From Chondrosia reniformis (Eukaryota > Porifera > Demospongiae > Chondrillida > Chondrillidae), in the NCBI GenBank assembly GCA_947172415.1, contig OX359202.1, forward strand, positions 3,694,001-3,758,000: a stretch of 64,000 nucleotides of DNA. Reading direction: 5' to 3'. Below, piece after piece: positions 4,333-64,000 of this stretch; position 1 is the stretch's first letter, and each line of letters opens with the position of its first letter. The position numbers were made by a program, and so were the translations under genes. The notes under the pieces were generated by a model. The model was not told the origin of the DNA, did no database searches, and saw nothing but the letters and a program-made list of their open reading frames with translations.

Positions 4333-5709
4333 ATAGATAGATAGATAGATAGAATTTTATTTTACAACAGGAATGCTGTATCTACAGTACACAGTCGATT
4401 TTCATACAGGTCCTGGAAAAAAACAGAGACAAAAAGTTTTGTACTAAACAGTTAACAACAACAATATCAAAAGTAATGAAAATAGTGATCCAGCTAATTC
4501 TACAAGTCAGAATCTCTTCTATGTCTAAGCACGGCATCCCTGAATAGCTTCCTCTCCTGTAACGCTCGGATAGTCGTGGGTAGATTGTTAAACATCTTGG
4601 CACCTTGAAACTCAAAACTTGCATGATAAAACTTAGTCCTAGGATGTGGTAGATGTAGTTTGGTTGAACCTCGAGTCTTTGCATAGTGTAGACTTGAGTT
4701 AGATGTGAACTTAGAGGAGAAGTAAGATGGTGCTTGATTTGTAACACAACGATGGACCTGACAGACCAATGCATTTCGTCTTCTCACTTCCAGGGTAGTC
4801 CACCCCAGTGTCCGTCTAAGCAATTCGCTACTTGTAAGTGGTGGCTTCCGCAAAATCAACCTGAGGGCATAGTTCTGCACCCTCTCTATGCGCTTGCCCA
4901 GTGTTGCCCCACAGGAGTGCCATACCACCGAGCAGTAGTCCAGGTGTGGAAGCACAAACGCTTGGTATAACAGCTTCCTGATGTGGCAGGGCAGGTATGA
5001 CCCAGCTTTTCTGATTGCTGCCAGCTTTCCCATGCACTGATTGTATACCTTCTGAATATGGGCCTTCCACGTCAGATCCCCTGTCGATCTCAACTCCAAG
5101 GTACCTCACACAACTTTGTTGTTGTAGCTCCACTTCCCCAATCTTCACCCGTACAGAGTCAGCCTCCTCACGCCTCCCTCTTCTGCTAAGGACCATCAGC
5201 TGTGTCTTTGCCACATTCAGTCTTAGTCCATTGGAGTGAATCCAAAGGGCTACTCTGCCTAGGGCCTTCTCCACTCTCTCTCCAAGCACCGTTGGGTCAG
5301 AGTCCGCTGAGTAGATGGCTGTGTCGTCTGCAAAAAGGTTAATGGATGTCTCCTGTACAACATCCGGTAAGTCATTCACAAACAACAGAAACAGTAGGGG
5401 TCCGAGGATAGATCCTTGGGGGACACCCATGGTGACCCTTGCCCACTCTGATGGAACACTGTTCAATACCACCCTCTGTTTCCTCCCTGACAAGTAGTCA
5501 GTGAACCATGCCAATTCTGCACCTTGTATGCCATAGGCATTCAGTTTCCTCAGCAGCAGGTCGTGATTGATGGTGTCAAAAGCTTTACTGAGATCAATCA
5601 TTACTGTGGCTACAATCTGGCCAAGATCCAGGGCTTTCTTCCAGTCATCAGTTGCTCTTAACAACACGTCTTGGGTTGATCTGTTTGGTCTGAACCCAGC
5701 TTGCCAGTA
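4333..5709 (-). mobile_element. 5'-truncated CR1/jockey-like LINE
   Basis: The fragment reads on the minus strand. Its 3' end is a 3' UTR of about 160 bp finishing in an (ATCT)n tail, seen on the plus strand as repeated ATAG at 4,333-4,353. Short microsatellite tails of this type are typical of CR1/L2/jockey-group LINEs. The 5' end stops at about 5,709 inside the reverse transcriptase, just upstream of the residues QAGFRPNRST, where satellite resumes abruptly. Truncation at the 5' end is what incomplete target-primed reverse transcription produces. The endonuclease and the first ORF are absent. Confidence 0.9.
4500..5709 (-). pseudogene. CR1/jockey-like reverse transcriptase, frameshifted fragment
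   Basis: This is the reverse transcriptase domain of a non-LTR retrotransposon, which copies element RNA at a nicked chromosomal target. Motifs appear in the expected order: GFRPNRST, DLSKAFDTINHDLL (first catalytic aspartate), GVPQGSILGPLLF, then LFADDTAIY with the catalytic AD-D pair, then YLGVEID. The reading frame changes once, at the run of four C on the plus strand (5,078-5,081). Downstream the second frame carries LTWKAHI and the long C-terminal thumb/tail region, ending with a stop at 4,500. One extra base in this run explains the break. Upstream parts of the protein are missing by 5' truncation. The catalytic residues that remain are intact, so decay is recent or slight. Confidence 0.9.
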
Positions 5710-6738
5710 ACTACACATATAACTGGCACTTATAGATAGTACATACACATAGTACATACATAGTACATACAACTAGTACATACAACTATAAACTGGTACA
5801 TACAACTAGTTTACAGAATGAGTACATAATACTAGAATGTTCAACTTGTATATACAACTAGTGCATAGCAATTATTTATTACTAGTATATACATAAAACT
5901 AGTACATACAACTGGTACATAACTAGTACATACAACTATTACATACAAATAGAACAAACAATTTGTTCATACAACTACTAAATACAATTTTATATGCAGC
6001 TAGTATCTAAAACTACTAAATATAATTAGGACTAGTACATAAAACTTGTGAATACAACTAGTACATACAATTAGTACATACAACTAGTACATGAAACTAG
6101 TACATACTACTAGTACATATCAAATAGTACCCACAACTAGTACATACAATTAGTACATACGACTAGAACATTCAATTAGTCCATGCAACTAAGACAAACA
6201 GCTAGGACATATAACTAGTACCTACACCTACTACATATAACTAGTAAATACACCTACCTTGTAAATATAAATAGTACATACAACTAATACATTCAACTAG
6301 TACATAAAACTAGTACATACAACTAGTAAATACAACTAGAAACTAGTATGTACAACTAGCTCACAAAATAGTATATAATACTAGAACGTACAACTTGTAT
6401 ATTCAACTAGTACATAACTACTACACACAACTAGGAAAAACCACTGGGACATATAAATAGTACATACACCTACTACATATAACTAGTACATACACTATTA
6501 CCTAATACTTATAAATAGTACATACAACTAGTATCTACTTCATACAACTAGTACCTTCCCAGCACCTAGTATAACTAGTACATGAACCTACCACTTGTAT
6601 ATACAACTAGTACATACAACTAGAACATACAACCAGTACATAACTGGCATATACAACTAGTATATACATACAACTAGTACATACAACTAGTACCTACAAC
6701 TAGTAAATATAACTAGTACATACAAGTAGTATATACAA
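5710..6738 (+). repeat. 13-bp satellite array, forward sense, block 4
   Basis: Same satellite as before. It includes the recurrent variant block around 6,540-6,600 (CAGCACCTAGTATAACTAG, then an ACTTGTATA variant) that also appears near 15,600, 22,000, 28,880 and 31,030. No gene is seen. Confidence 0.93.
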
Positions 6739-35158: not shown

Positions 35159-36619
35159 TTATCGTCCAGGCCCCAATCCCTCAACAGATAGATGTCGCCT
35201 CAATATCCTCACAGCTGAACAGAGAACAGTTCTCTGCATGGCTCTCATCACTTCTACTGCACTTTTTGACAGCTTTGGAATTCCCCTAAGGTCTTCCAGG
35301 AGCGTCTCCACTGTCCCCAAAGCACCAATTATCATCGGGACTACCTTAATTCGGTAGCCCCTAAATTGTTCCCTCATATCAGCTGCCAGCTTCTGGTACT
35401 TTTGGAACTTCTCTTGCCATCTTCCATTAATATTGCTGTCAGTAGGAACTGACATCTCAATAATGTAGATGGACTTACATAGCCGATCCTCAACCACTAA
35501 GTCTGGCCTTCTTTCTGTCATTTCATCATCTGTAGGGAGACTAGGATCCCACAAGATTTTGACAGACCTATTCTCATAGACTGGTTTTGCTTCTAGTTTG
35601 TACCAGGGCTCTTCCTGCTTGAATCCATATTCTTTCAACAGTCTCCACAACACTATCAGTATTGCCCGGTCATGTCTCTCTTTGTAGAGAGAAAATCCCT
35701 TGGGCTCACACATGTTTAGTATGTGTTTGACCGTTTCCATAGCCTTGCCACATTCTCTGCACATTAGGAGGCTAGAATTCTTCAGAATCCTATTTTGGTA
35801 CCACCTAGTGTGCAGCACATCATCTTGGGCTGCGAGAATCAGAGCCTCAGTTTGAGGTCTGAGTCTCCCCTCAGAAAGCCACACATAAGACTCCCTATTT
35901 GTGACTTGTCTGTGGTATGAGCCCTGGTGAGACTTTTCGGCTAGGTTACTTTTTAACCTTTCAGTCTGAGCCTCCCGGAGCTCACGTGCCACTCTCCTCC
36001 ATTCTCTTACACTATTTTGTGAGGGATCTGTCTTCAGCCACATTTCCGGTTCTAGTTCTATTCCGTGGCTTCTCAGTATCAATCTGGCTTCTTTCAAGAC
36101 AGTCCTCCCCTGCTTTGAGCACTCCAGCCACTTTTGGTGTTTAACCAAAACAGCTATGAGTGGATCATTGGCAGTATGGAGGTATCTTGCCAGATTCACA
36201 ACAGCCCTGTCGTGATCCAAAGGAAAACTACAGAGCCCTCTACCACCTTGAGAGCGAGGCAAATTCACTCTTTCAATGGCAGAGTTATAGTGATGACACT
36301 GGTACTTTCTCATGATCTTTCTCACCATTCGGTCCAGTTTTGGAAGCTCACTTTGAGTCCACTTCAAAAATGGGTAAGAGTATCTCAATAGAGAGGCACA
36401 CAACATGTTAGAGGCTTCTGCAGCATTCTTACCATTGAGGTGAGAGCCCCACACTTTGTGGTGTCTCCTCCTCAATTCGTTGATCAAGCAAGCTTTGACC
36501 TTCCTGTCATCTACCTCAAACAGTTGTTCTAGCCCTAGGTACTTATACCCTCCGTAGTACATTTGCCAAGGCAGACTGTGCAGAGGGGAGTGCTTTCCAC
36601 CAAAAAGTGTGGATGCCAT
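35159..36619 (-). pseudogene. R2-like Pol C-terminal half (thumb, CCHC finger, nuclease)
   Basis: This uninterrupted frame of 486 codons starts just upstream of the residues YKYLGLEQ, which match the motif following the reverse-transcriptase catalytic core. It runs through a thumb-like region (RSQGGRGLCSFPLDHDRAVV) to a finger, CRECGKAMETVKHILNMC (C-x2-C-x8-H-x4-C). Next come RRPDLVVEDR and, 14 residues after the PD, IIEMSVPTD with EKFQKYQKL beyond, matching the PD...(D/E)...K pattern of the restriction-like endonuclease used by R2-group elements to nick their target. The tail VVPMIIGALGTVETLLEDL and a basic end complete the domain. The intact length suggests recent activity in trans or recent deletion. 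Confidence 0.85.
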
Positions 36620-37241
36620 CCGGCCCAGGGGCTGACCAGCTTTTTGCCTTTTTCAAGGCTTTCCTCAGTTTGGTCTCATCAATGCTATCGAGACCTTCAG
36701 AGGAGGTTCTACCCACCCTCTTCTTGATTTCCTTTAGCATTTCTTTCACCCCTGGGTCGTCCTTGTTGACCTTACCAACAGTACCTGCAATCTCTGTCCA
36801 AAAGTCTCTTACTGCCTCAATTGAGGGAGCTTCATTGGAGGTTGGAATATTGCCATTCATCCGGAACTTCCTTTGGGTATTCCAAAGGTGGTTTTGTTCC
36901 TGGAATTTCCCGCGTTCAGCCGATCTTCGCTCTTGTAGGGTCCAGACCCTGAGTTTCCCCAGTGTCTGTTCCCGAGCTCTAATCAGCACATTCAGGTTTA
37001 ATGAATGGAACTCCCTCCTAAGCTTTCTTCGGAGTACTTTCTGGCGTTTGGTCATAGGATTATTACTCTGTTGACGCGCTATTTCCACATCCAACCAGGC
37101 AAGCAGTCTTCTAAACCTAAGGCCTTTGGCCTTCCTGTCACTTATGTGACCTTCCTGTCTCTTACTTCCCTTCTGATTATCTGATTTCCTTCCCTGGTTG
37201 CATGGCTGCGATTCGGAGGTTGTTTTTCCCCTCACAGCCAT
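36543..37241 (-). pseudogene. R2-like Pol central part up to reverse-transcriptase start
   Basis: The frame begins in a basic linker and passes a long charged helical stretch. It reaches LRKALKKAKSWSAPGPDGIH and TFWWKAL, the conserved entry of non-LTR reverse transcriptases (PGPDGI, then FWWK). Within about 15 codons the sequence shifts into the frame that carries YKYLGLEQ. All catalytic motifs between (the first aspartate, GxPQG, YADD) are missing. The normal distance between these landmarks in this family is a few hundred residues, so this is an internal deletion rather than simple decay. Confidence 0.8.
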
Positions 37242-37255
37242 AGCAACAGAGTAGA

Positions 37256-37990
37256 CTAGGTAGTTGAGGTGCCAGGCCGACCTGGGGCCTTCCTACCACT
37301 CTTACTCCACCCAATCATAGGCCTCCTGAAGCAGTGCCGTATCAACATGGTTGAACCGCACCGCCCCACAGGGTTTCTATCAGAGAAATCTCCAGGTTTC
37401 TTTCGGAGACAGGCATCTTTTGCTTTTCCTAAAAGTTGCATCAGTTGATCATTGCCACTTGTCCTGGGACTAGGATGATCATTTACAGGAGTTTCAACAG
37501 GGGCTGCAGGCAGCTCACCATTTTGTTCAGTCACAGCCTGAACTTGGTGAAGCTTATCCTGTCCCTGGGCTCCCACACCTTCCTCCACAGTCCCAGTTAA
37601 GGTGACTAAACCACAAGAGTCAGGTTCCACAAGGTTTAGTCTCGAGAGACCTTGACCTCTTCGGATTCTACTAATTCTCGTAGTTAGCGCTACCTTTGTG
37701 GTTTTATGGTCTGGCATTTTAGCATTCCAAGCCTGGTACAACCGCTCGGTATACCCCTTTTCCATGGGCTTACTTTCTCGGTAGAGCTCCATGAGGATAT
37801 AATCCCTCTGAAGGTTCCAGATCACCCCTTGGATCCTTCTCCTTCTAGAGGCACCTTGTGGTGCATCATTAACCAAATCTAAATCTCGGCTACCAGTTAC
37901 TTGCATTACTTCGTCTCCTACCAAGTTCCTTGTGGCTTGGAAGCAAGGGTTCGACCGGTTTGAGGCAAATGTGGGTATTTGCTCAGCCAT
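37256..37990 (-). pseudogene. R2-like N-terminal region, second Myb-like segment
   Basis: Residues near the start are out of frame with the preceding piece. From ASRRRRIQGVIWNLQRDYIL the segment reads like a Myb/SANT-type helix bundle, continuing LMELYRESKPMEKGYTERLY and TTKVALTTRISRIRRGQGLS. A linker rich in Pro, Gly and Gln follows. Near the end an alternative frame around 37,310-37,350 reads FNHVDTALLQEAYDWVE, which looks like the authentic continuation, so another frameshift lies at about 37,360. R2-type proteins use N-terminal fingers and a Myb domain for target binding. Confidence 0.6.
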
Positions 37991-38247
37991 TCCCGCTCTA
38001 AACGCTTCTGATAGCCACCTCTTTTGGGTTCAGATCGCTCATAGCAATCAATTAGTGTCCTAACCATTTCCTCGGTCCATAGGGCTGGTTGGCCCATCAT
38101 GCGGACCGAAGAAAGGCTATTACATTCAGGTACATCTACCTGTGAGGCACCAGTGGAATCACCTATTCTGGTTGACCTAGGGTTTTCTTCACCACTGGTG
38201 CACCTAGGCCACAGCCTGTCTTGAAAATTGTCATTCTCATGGCGCAA
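37918..38247 (-). pseudogene. R2-like N-terminal region, first Myb-like segment
   Basis: The first methionine is at 38,247. After a low-complexity start, the residues ALWTEEMVRTLIDCYERSEP and YQKRLEREWLSKYPHL resemble a Myb/trihelix-like DNA-binding fold (W-T-x-E-M followed by spaced aromatic residues). The frame breaks at about 37,935, where the next piece takes over. The assignment rests on pattern only; no zinc finger is evident upstream. Confidence 0.55.
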
Positions 38248-62000: not shown

Positions 62001-62484
62001 ATGTATTAGTTATATGTAGTAGGTGTTTGTACTAGTTATATGTACTAGTTGAAAGTACTAGTTGTATGTACTATTTGTATGTACTAGAACTAGCTATATT
62101 TACTAGTTTTAGGTACTAGTTATATGTATTGGTTGTATGTAGTAGTTGCAAGTGCTAAATATATGTACAAGTTCTGTGTATTAGTTGTATGTAAATACTA
62201 GTTGTATGTACTAACCATGTACTAGTTGTATGTTCAAGTTGTATGCACTAGATACTAGTTGCATGTACTAGTTGTAAGTACTAGTTGTATGTACCAGTTG
62301 TATTTACCATTTGTACGGACCATTTATATGTGTGTGTACCAGTTATATGTAGTAGTTGTATGCACTAGATGTATGAACCAGTTGTATGTACTATTTACAT
62401 TTACTAGGTGTACGTGTATGTAATAGTTATATGTAGTAGGTGTATGTACTAGTTATATGTCATAGTTGTATGTACTAGTTGCAG
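59058..62484 (-). repeat. 13-bp satellite array, reverse sense, block 18
   Basis: Reverse-sense satellite without other content. Confidence 0.92.
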
Positions 62485-62518
62485 TTAAAAGGGAGTTAAT
62501 TGCACTGCAAGGGCTAAA

Positions 62519-62766
62519 ATGATCAAAAATAATCACTGGAAATTATTACACCAAACCAGACAAGTGATTGAAGTGTACCACACTGATGAGCCCAAATGAG
62601 GGCGAAACAGCTGTCTGTGGTTCTTTGATGAATTTTTCCATCTTTGGATGACTGGGAGGCGATCACTGGTTGCCATCTTAATAGGACTTCGGTCCCCCAG
62701 CCAAGATAAGACTTCGGTCACTTGGCTGGTTTGGTGTAATAATTTCCAGTGATTATTTTTGATCAT
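62519..62766. mobile_element. Terminal-inverted-repeat element enclosing a hammerhead ribozyme
   Basis: The outer 40 bases (62,519-62,558 and 62,727-62,766) are exact reverse complements. Pairing continues inwards to about 62 bases per arm with only a few mismatches. Between the arms lie a canonical hammerhead ribozyme (62,576-62,622) and short GACTTCGGTC-type hairpin words. About 34 further non-satellite bases sit on the left (62,485-62,518). No ORF of significance is present. This could be an inverted pair of Penelope-type terminal repeats, a retrozyme-like RNA element, or a foldback element that captured a ribozyme. The sequence alone does not decide. Confidence 0.8.
62576..62622 (+). ncRNA. 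Hammerhead ribozyme, canonical
   Basis: All conserved parts are present. Stem I pairs ACCACA (62,577-62,582) with TGTGGT (62,616-62,621). The core CTGATGA is at 62,583-62,589. Stem II is GCCC (62,590-62,593) with GGGC (62,600-62,603) around a 6-base loop. GAAA is at 62,604-62,607. The short stem III is A-C/G-U around AGCT, and the cleavage triplet GTC is at 62,613-62,615. The first pair of stem II is the standard G-C. The element is type I with a two-pair stem III, the form known from Penelope-like elements and retrozymes, which usually cut as dimers. Confidence 0.9.
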
Positions 62767-64000
62767 GACCTAGTTGTATATACCAATCGTATGTACCAGT
62801 TGTATGTCCTAGCTGATGGTACTATTTACTAGTTTTATTTAGAAGTTGTGTGTAGTAGTTCAATGTACTAGTTTTATGTTTTCATTACTATTTGTATGTA
62901 CTAGTTATATGTACTAATTTAATCTACTAGTCGTATGTACAAATTGCATGTACTAGTTGCATGTACATGTTGTGCGTACTAGTTCAATGTACTAGTTGTA
63001 TGTACTCGTTACTAGTTGTTAGCAGTAGTTGTATGTACTAGTTTCATGTACTAGTTCCAATTATATGTACTAGTTTTATGTATCATTTGTATGTATTAAT
63101 TGTATATGCAAATTGTATATACTAGGTGTAGGTAATAGTTGTATGTTCCAATTGTTTGAACTAGGTCTATGTACTAATTGTATGTACTAGTTATGTATTA
63201 GTTATATGAACTAGTTTTAAGTACCAGTGTAAGTACTAGGTTTATGTAGTAGTTGCCTGTTCTAATTGTTTGAACTAGTTCTATGTACTAATTGTATGCA
63301 CTAGGTATCTACCAGTTACTAGTTTCTAGTTGTTTGTACTAGTTGTAGTACTCGTTGTATGTACTCTGTGTATGTACCAGTTGTTGATTCTTGTACTCCT
63401 TATACTATGTACTAGGTAGGTTCTGGTTGATTGTACTAGATACTTGTTGCATGTAATAGTTGTATGAATTAGTTTTATGAACTATTTGTGTGTACTGTTT
63501 ATATGTACTAGTTATATGTACCAGTTATATGTACTAGTTTTATGTACTAGTTATATTTACTAGTTGTATGTACTAGTTGTATGTACTAGTTGTATGTATG
63601 TAGATCTTAATTGTACTAGTTATTAGTTGTGTGAACTAGTTGTATGAACTAGTTGCATGTACTGGTTATATGTACTAGTTAATAGTTGTGTGAACTAGTT
63701 TTACGACCTAATTGTAAATACTAGTTGTATGAACTAGTTGTTTGTATAAAATAGTTGTATGAACTAGTTAAATGTAATAGTTTTATGTATATATTAGTTT
63801 TATGGACTAGTTTCTAGTTGCATGTACTATTTATTTGAACTATTTATATTTTCATGTATGAGTTTTATGTGGTAGATTTGTGTTATAGTTTTATGTACTA
63901 GTTGCAAGTACTAATTGTAGGTACTAGTTGTGTATACTAGTTGTATGTATTTACTAGTTGTATGAACTAGCTATGTACTGGTTGTATGTACCAGTTTTGT
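62767..64000 (-). repeat. 13-bp satellite array, reverse sense, block 19
   Basis: Reverse-sense satellite to the end of the window, including the inverted module with TGTTGTGCGTACTAGTTC near 62,970. The array continues beyond the window edge. Confidence 0.92.

What the first reader, a model, noticed from the sequence alone, without database searches (positions are those of the whole stretch)
62519..62766. Canonical hammerhead ribozyme inside a 248-bp element with perfect 40-bp terminal inverted repeats
All conserved hammerhead bases, a G-C closed stem II and a 6-bp stem I are present. The ribozyme lies between inverted arms of about 62 bp. Hammerheads are known from Penelope-like terminal repeats, retrozymes and satellite RNAs, but a hammerhead framed by long terminal inverted repeats is not a common description. 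RNA from it would combine a self-cleaving core with a long closing stem.
Basis: partly seen in the sequence, partly recalled or inferred. Interest (0 to 1): 0.85.

Follow-up and report, generated by a model that had tools for sequence, protein, structure and literature searches.

The report
Ribozyme retroelement with Penelope-type ends
The hammerhead ribozyme is real and sits in one copy of a small non-coding jumping element that recurs through the genome; its inverted arms look like the imprint of how it was pasted in, an imprint shared with Penelope retrotransposons of the same genome, which points to the machinery that may move such animal elements.

Summary
The hammerhead (62577-62621, +) is confirmed by Rfam (RF00163, 34.6 bits, cut-off 34) and so are the inverted arms (56 nt, 95%). 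But this is not a symmetric TIR transposon: the element runs from about 62485 to 62766 and only its left end has a 34-nt tail. It belongs to a 356-bp repeat of metazoan-retrozyme type whose ribozyme core occurs at 203 places in an animal genome, probably a sponge (inference). Of 39 inverted-pair insertions in two families, 30 have one outer end at site A and one at site B (42 or 57 nt apart), 1 is A/A, 0 are B/B, 8 have an end at neither. 28 of 29 automatically called A/B copies have a target duplication spanning both arms. Three of three fully read inverted pairs of an RT/GIY-YIG Penelope-like family show the same rule. This fits the two RT start sites and both-strand priming published for a Penelope element in vitro. 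Best reading: a Penelope-type enzyme primes from both nicked strands at two sites of one retrozyme RNA, perhaps the circle. The driver had been proposed in print; I found no report of this signature. No RNA or biochemical evidence was available.

The parts
62485..62766 (.). whole insertion: inverted-pair copy of a 356-bp retrozyme unit (BLAST puts the left limit at 62482-62485)
   Evidence: BLAST of the L006 unit on the window: 62567-62766 (+, 98.5%) and 62574-62482 (-, 87%); outer ends called A and B (L001)
62485..62574 (-). left arm (A arm): inverted copy of the unit's 3' part, outer end at site A
62485..62518 (-). 'tail', the stretch between sites B and A (34 nt here, 42 nt in L006), unpaired with the right end
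   Evidence: shorter than in L006 by an internal deletion
62519..62574 (-). left half of the inverted repeat
62711..62766 (+). right half of the inverted repeat, outer end at site B (..TTTTTGATCAT)
   Evidence: site B recurs
62567..62766 (+). right arm (B arm), unit positions 115-314, carries the ribozyme
62577..62621 (+). type I hammerhead ribozyme, cleavage site 62615/62616
   Evidence: Rfam RF00163 34.6 bits
62474..62483 (.). left copy of a possible target-site duplication (8 of 10 with the right copy)
   Evidence: read by eye; uncertain because the target is itself a 13-bp satellite
62769..62778 (.). right copy of the possible target-site duplication
   Evidence: read by eye; uncertain, same reason

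Best explanation
The feature is one insertion of a non-autonomous metazoan-type retrozyme (unit about 356 nt, type I hammerhead), placed by the RT/GIY-YIG enzyme of a Penelope-like element. Proposed steps: (1) a multimeric transcript self-cleaves at the hammerhead and is closed into a circle (inferred from published retrozymes, not shown here); (2) the enzyme nicks both target strands about 9-15 bp apart (shown as duplications; the enzyme is inferred); (3) each nicked 3' end primes reverse transcription, one at site A and one at site B, on the same RNA molecule (the A/B rule is shown; initiation at both sites and the shared molecule are inferred); (4) the two cDNAs, copied in the same direction, are joined head to head, giving inverted arms of variable length, one outer end with the tail and one without (structure shown; joining inferred). 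The window copy has a 90-nt A arm and a 200-nt B arm.
For: Type I hammerhead. The 34-nt ribozyme core has 203 places with up to 3 mismatches, control 0. Unit 356 bp, tandem in L078 and L090. Of 39 inverted-pair insertions in two families, 30 A/B, 1 A/A, 0 B/B, 8 with one end elsewhere (with L007 merged into L004 and L008 called B by eye); binomial p 1.5e-8 for 30 of 31 if ends were independent and equally likely. 28 of 29 automatically called A/B copies have a duplication score of at least 9, against 2.3% of mismatched flank pairs and 6 of the 25 other copies. A Penelope-like family of the genome (RVT_1 and GIY-YIG in one frame in L050) gives A/B ends with duplications of 12-13 bp, read by eye, in 3 of 3 inverted pairs with both ends read: L054/L050, L098, L099. 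A purified Penelope-like enzyme starts RT at two adjacent internal sites, equal to the genomic 'tail', and cleaves and extends both strands (PMC11167929). Circle: 20 of 50 and 8 of 33 arms exceed one unit by more than 14 nt; family-1 arms end within -15/+85 nt of one circuit 18 times against 4.2 expected, a range chosen after seeing the lengths; inner ends are not enriched at the ribozyme cleavage site (4 of 50, expected 5.8; 4 of 33, expected 3.8; +-20 nt).
Against: No RNA data, so circles, self-cleavage and expression are not shown. The one-circuit excess is not significant in family 2 (7 against 3.8, p 0.09), and a long uncleaved multimer could also template arms longer than a unit. No sequence similarity between the retrozyme unit and the GIY-YIG loci was found except a retrozyme fragment in L046 and a 19-nt match in L058 at E 0.68 (20 of 38 listed GIY-YIG matches had letters), so the driver family is unknown. 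Eight of 39 inverted pairs have an end at neither site and one is A/A. The query that found the Penelope-like pairs carried the tail, so B/B pairs would have been missed. The window copy's duplication is imperfect and lies in a satellite. A and B were located on the same copies that were then counted (tolerance 14 nt).
Confidence: 0.73

Rival explanations
1. A MITE or foldback DNA transposon with terminal inverted repeats moved by a transposase; the hammerhead is a passenger.
For: Inverted ends plus target duplication in many copies.
Against: The two ends differ in all 30 inverted pairs with a duplication score of 9 or more; arms range from 48 to 1778 nt; duplication length varies, about 9-15 bp; tandem and single-arm copies exist.
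Confidence: 0.03
2. Twin priming by a LINE: the second nick primes internally at random on a linear RNA, giving a 5' inversion.
For: An inverted 5' part plus a duplication is the known LINE twin-priming product (recalled); a reverse transcriptase fragment lies in the window (RVT_1 103 bits).
Against: Both outer ends are at fixed sites; many arms exceed one unit; a Penelope-like family shares the pattern. LINE 3' ends of this genome were not compared.
Confidence: 0.08
3. Self-priming (snap-back) on one cDNA: only one site is an RT start and the other is where copying of the first strand stops; self-priming on an antisense template was proposed in 2013 for Penelope of a rotifer.
For: In L002 and L072 both arms meet at almost the same unit position; published proposal (PMC3846280, passages).
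Against: Single-arm copies with a duplication score of at least 9 end at B (L082, L012, L034) as well as at A (L006); in vitro both sites are RT starts (PMC11167929); in many pairs the arms meet at different unit positions.
Confidence: 0.12
4. The window copy is a decayed solo pLTR of an RT-encoding Penelope-like element rather than of an independent retrozyme.
For: ORF-less Penelope-like inverted pairs with hammerhead-like cores exist (L098, L099) and have the same layout.
Against: The unit has no BLAST similarity to the GIY-YIG loci examined apart from a retrozyme fragment in L046 and a 19-nt match in L058 (20 loci); it forms its own tandem arrays.
Confidence: 0.05

Closest known systems
Metazoan non-LTR retrozymes (Cervera and de la Pena 2020, PMC7229834; seen: outline, one passage, results part 1 of 3, discussion)
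   Same: Type I hammerhead, units of 150-450 bp, tandem and dispersed copies, GC below 50%, duplications longer than 4 bp when present
   Different: Its main text has no occurrence of 'inverted' and leaves the driver open, naming PLEs as a strong candidate; here inverted pairs with fixed A/B ends are the commonest form, 39 of 54 insertions
Penelope-like elements: Anolis PAc (PMC11167929, parts 1-3 of 4 read) and Adineta Pen2a (PMC3846280, passages)
   Same: Two adjacent internal RT start sites (tail of 30-40 bp), both strands primed in vitro, head-to-head inverted arms with the tail on one of them, duplications of 8-10 bp in Adineta
   Different: The window element has no RT/EN gene and no similarity found to the genome's GIY-YIG loci; the rule is measured here over many small insertions
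Plant LTR retrozymes (PMC4918200; search listing and start of abstract only)
   Same: Small non-autonomous hammerhead elements proposed to spread as RNA circles
   Different: Type III hammerheads, LTRs, 4-bp duplications (as told in PMC7229834)

Membership tests
metazoan non-LTR retrozyme | canonical type I hammerhead | tested here: met
   RF00163 34.6 bits, just over the cut-off of 34
metazoan non-LTR retrozyme | repeat unit of 150-450 bp, tandem and dispersed copies | tested here: met
   356-bp unit; 1624-nt tandem in L078; 203 core places
metazoan non-LTR retrozyme | no protein-coding capacity | tested here: inconclusive
   one 89-codon antisense ORF of at least 40 codons in the L006 unit, not tested further
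metazoan non-LTR retrozyme | GC below 50% | tested here: met
   42.7% for the L006 unit
metazoan non-LTR retrozyme | target duplications longer than 4 bp when present | tested here: met
   about 9-15 bp in other copies; the window copy's own is uncertain
metazoan non-LTR retrozyme | no LTR, primer-binding site or polypurine tract | not tested
   none
metazoan non-LTR retrozyme | expressed as linear and circular RNA | not testable with these tools
   no RNA data
Penelope-like element | ORF with RT and GIY-YIG domains | tested here: not met
   unit has only an 89-codon antisense ORF; such ORFs exist elsewhere in the genome
Penelope-like element | insertion signature: tail on one of two inverted ends, short target duplication | tested here: met
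   30 A/B, 1 A/A, 0 B/B, 8 unresolved of 39; window copy A/B; 3 of 3 pairs of a Penelope-like family alike
TIR DNA transposon / MITE | same sequence at both termini and fixed-length duplication | tested here: not met
   34-nt tail on one side only in the window; duplications about 9-15 bp
plant LTR retrozyme | type III hammerhead in LTRs | tested here: not met
   type I model is the only match at the gathering threshold

The most novel reading that the evidence does not exclude
Penelope-type enzymes integrate by priming both nicked target strands on one and the same RNA molecule, at two start sites on either side of a short palindromic stretch, so that each insertion takes A on one strand and B on the other; the ribozyme-made RNA circle is the natural template, which would explain why Penelope-like elements and animal retrozymes keep hammerheads and why both leave inverted, one-tailed insertions.
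Probability: 0.43. Interest if true: 0.75.

Novelty: new variant of a known kind. Interest (0 to 1): 0.56.

Why it matters
Which enzyme moves animal retrozymes, and whether their RNA circle is the template, was proposed but left open in the papers I could read. The A/B end rule is a DNA-level fingerprint that ties these retrozymes to Penelope-type insertion, needs no RNA, and can be checked in any animal genome. It also adds a constraint to the in vitro Penelope work: in a single insertion the two strands use different start sites, which suggests that one RNA serves both primers.

Tried and rejected
TIR transposon, LINE twin priming, snap-back and solo pLTR readings were weighed (see rivals). 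Similarity between the retrozyme unit and the GIY-YIG loci was sought and not found beyond L046 and a 19-nt match; a likeness of the pyrimidine-rich A ends was seen by eye only. L095 has a tail-only Penelope-like insert beside a retrozyme insert with three near-identical copies of a 12-13 nt target; an anecdote, not counted. The search that gave the Penelope-like pairs used a query with the tail and scored 40 of 1730 candidates; I looked at 5 minus/plus pairs from it: 3 with both ends read are A/B, 2 (L100/L101, L102/L103) have an A end on the left and an unread other end. The hairpin between B and A is weaker than I first thought: family-2 tail folds as a hairpin alone and in the whole unit, family-1 tail folds as a hairpin alone (-6.5 kcal/mol) but pairs elsewhere in the whole unit, linear or circular; so I write 'palindromic stretch'. 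Inner ends near A or B are only modestly enriched (14 of 50, expected 8.7, p 0.043; 13 of 33, expected 5.8, p 0.0025; +-15 nt). That 72 of 93 arms span the ribozyme cut was not used, because loci were chosen for holding a ribozyme; ribozyme conservation could not be tested for the same reason. Rows dropped before the census: L003 (same locus as L002), L010 and L013 (distant relatives of family 1), L007 (merged with L004), the retrozyme fragment in L046. Single-arm calls (15 of 54) are an upper bound: by eye L018 has a short A arm (about 20 nt) and an exact 11-bp duplication, so it is a further A/B copy, and L020 has a short B arm opposite its A end but no adjoining duplication; neither was moved in the counts. 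The organism is inferred: contig C15 holds a COX1 with 8 in-frame TGA and five AGR codons, compatible with code 4; 'probably a sponge' is recall. Papers PMC8557442, PMC522041, PMC4209133 and PMC5850863 were not held, so older Penelope papers that may state the one-tail rule more fully were not read. One search's BLAST was swamped by the satellite; only its printed sequences were used.

Full report
WHAT IS THERE. The window lies in an animal genome of 117.4 Mb in 15 contigs and is dominated by a degenerate 13-bp satellite (capped list). At the gathering threshold Rfam finds one RNA in it: a type I hammerhead at 62577-62621 (+), 34.6 bits with a cut-off of 34. The arms 62519-62574 and 62711-62766 are 95% complementary over 56 nt, identical in the outer 41. 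The left arm continues to about 62485 with a 34-nt tail lacking at the right end, so the element is about 62485-62766. Stem III is the palindrome ACAGCUGU, which I draw as two pairs and an AGCU tetraloop (reading); PMC7229834 describes two pairs with a tetraloop as the invertebrate form (passage). The RNA of the element folds with z -13.1; stems I and II form, but the program pairs CUG of the core with CAG, so it does not draw the catalytic fold (likewise for the L006 unit).

COPIES. The 34-nt ribozyme core has 203 places with up to 3 mismatches; the control has none. A second family, alike only in the ribozyme, was reached with RF00163: 65 matches listed from 73 scored of 11921 candidates, 51 over the cut-off. 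I had letters for 54 insertions of the two families after merging by flank identity. Family-1 loci came from the best DNA matches, the first 30 perfect core matches and 8 clusters that I chose; family-2 loci are 28 of the 30 best RF00163 loci, L010 and L013 being set aside. The units are 356 bp (L006) and 354 bp (L022). Some copies are tandem, such as L078 and L090, the usual form of animal retrozymes.

THE END RULE. 39 of the 54 are head-to-head inverted pairs with 3' ends outward. Outer ends fall mostly on two points of the unit: A (unit 356..CTCCCTTTTAA or ..CCCTTTTTTCA) and B (unit 314..TTTTTGATCAT or ..TTTTGCTTATCA) in family 1, A2 (about 236) and B2 (about 179) in family 2. Of 39 inverted pairs 30 are A/B, 1 is A/A (L011, duplication score 7), none is B/B, and 8 have one end at neither point: L064, L065, L089, L093, L009, L025, L027, L028 (tolerance 14 nt; L008 counted as A/B by eye because a small deletion hides B). 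If ends were independent and equally likely, 30 or more of 31 has p 1.5e-8. Duplications flank the pair as one insertion: score at least 9 in 28 of 29 automatically called A/B copies, against 2.3% of mismatched flank pairs; of the 25 other copies 6 reach it (L006, L008, L082, L012, L034, L028). So 30 inverted pairs carry a duplication by that score, of which 29 are A/B and one is A/unit 154; some lie in the satellite, where chance matches are easier, the window copy among them. The stretch between B and A is partly palindromic in both families; it folds as a hairpin alone in both, but within the whole unit only in family 2.

PENELOPE-LIKE FAMILY. GIY-YIG matches over the cut-off number 38 (150 of 382 candidates scored). 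L050 has RVT_1 and GIY-YIG in one open frame of 549 codons; whether a full-length intact copy exists was not tested. A hammerhead-like core, found by pattern only, follows the ORF in L048, L049, L050, L054, L055 and L056. L054/L050 is an inverted pair of ORF-bearing copies; L098 and L099 are short pairs of the same family without the ORF. In all three, one end has a tail of about 34 nt and the other has none, with duplications of 13, 12 and 12 bp read by eye. Two further pairs have an A end and an unread end. The query carried the tail, so B/B pairs would have been missed.

READING. A purified Penelope-like enzyme of Anolis starts reverse transcription at two adjacent sites inside its RNA, the stretch between them being the genomic 'tail', and cleaves and extends both target strands; its authors saw no difference in start site between strands (PMC11167929, parts 1-3 of 4). 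In Adineta the tail is optionally on one of two inverted pLTRs (PMC3846280, passages). The retrozymes here carry the same signature, so a Penelope-type enzyme is the likely driver. PLEs were proposed as strong candidates in PMC7229834 (discussion) and PMC7761336, which also says that the repeats show no motif that tells the driver (passages). The A/B rule adds that the two strands of one insertion use different start sites. If each strand had its own RNA, A/A and B/B should occur; their near absence suggests one RNA for both.

CIRCLE. Arms longer than a unit by more than 14 nt (20 of 50 and 8 of 33) need a circular or multimeric template. In family 1, arms end around one full circuit 18 times against 4.2 expected from the rates before and after (p 4e-7; 7e-6 against the rate before alone), in family 2 7 against 3.8 (p 0.09); the range was chosen after seeing the lengths. 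Inner ends show no excess at the ribozyme cut. This favours the circle in family 1 and is inconclusive in family 2.

NOVELTY. Searches: 13 papers; 2; 5; 2; 10; 25 papers with 'retrozyme' since 2021, listing only; 5; 0; 1. None of the listings, passages or sections that I saw describes one-tailed inverted retrozyme insertions; I did not read most of the listed papers, and several older subscription papers were not held. The one-tail layout itself is known for Penelope.

VERDICT. The window copy itself is an ordinary member of its family.

Noticed in passing
window 1-64000: Much of the window is a degenerate 13-bp satellite (ACTAGTACATACA-like) whose strand switches more than once between about 42 and 46 kb (GC skew), interrupted by retroelement pieces.
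   Followed up: no
window 4500-5772 (-): Reverse transcriptase fragment in two overlapping frames; RVT_1 103.4 bits in one.
   Followed up: partly
window 35159-38029 (-): Three long frames in a row with no Pfam match at E 0.001.
   Followed up: partly
L095, about 1230-1300: A 38-nt Penelope-like 'tail' alone lies directly beside a retrozyme insertion, with three near-identical copies of a 12-13 nt target: same nick used twice, or one chimeric event.
   Followed up: partly
L064, L065, L089, L093: Four family-1 inverted pairs without duplications have their odd outer end in or at the edge of the hammerhead (unit 128-166).
   Followed up: no
L009, L011, L019, L020, L021, L022: Family-2 inner cDNA ends pile up at unit 337-340, about 15 nt upstream of the hammerhead: 6 of 33 by my count of the list; cause unknown.
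   Followed up: no
L004, L005, L007, L064 (contig C1, 6.44-6.57 Mb): The same retrozyme insertion, or close relatives of it, recurs with shared flanks, as in segmental duplications.
   Followed up: partly
L006 1431-1700 (-): An 89-codon antisense ORF in the retrozyme unit, possibly chance.
   Followed up: no
G000 (own genome): The Penelope-like tail motif occurs 311 times (167 forward, 144 reverse) in two main sequence variants among the 100 listed.
   Followed up: no
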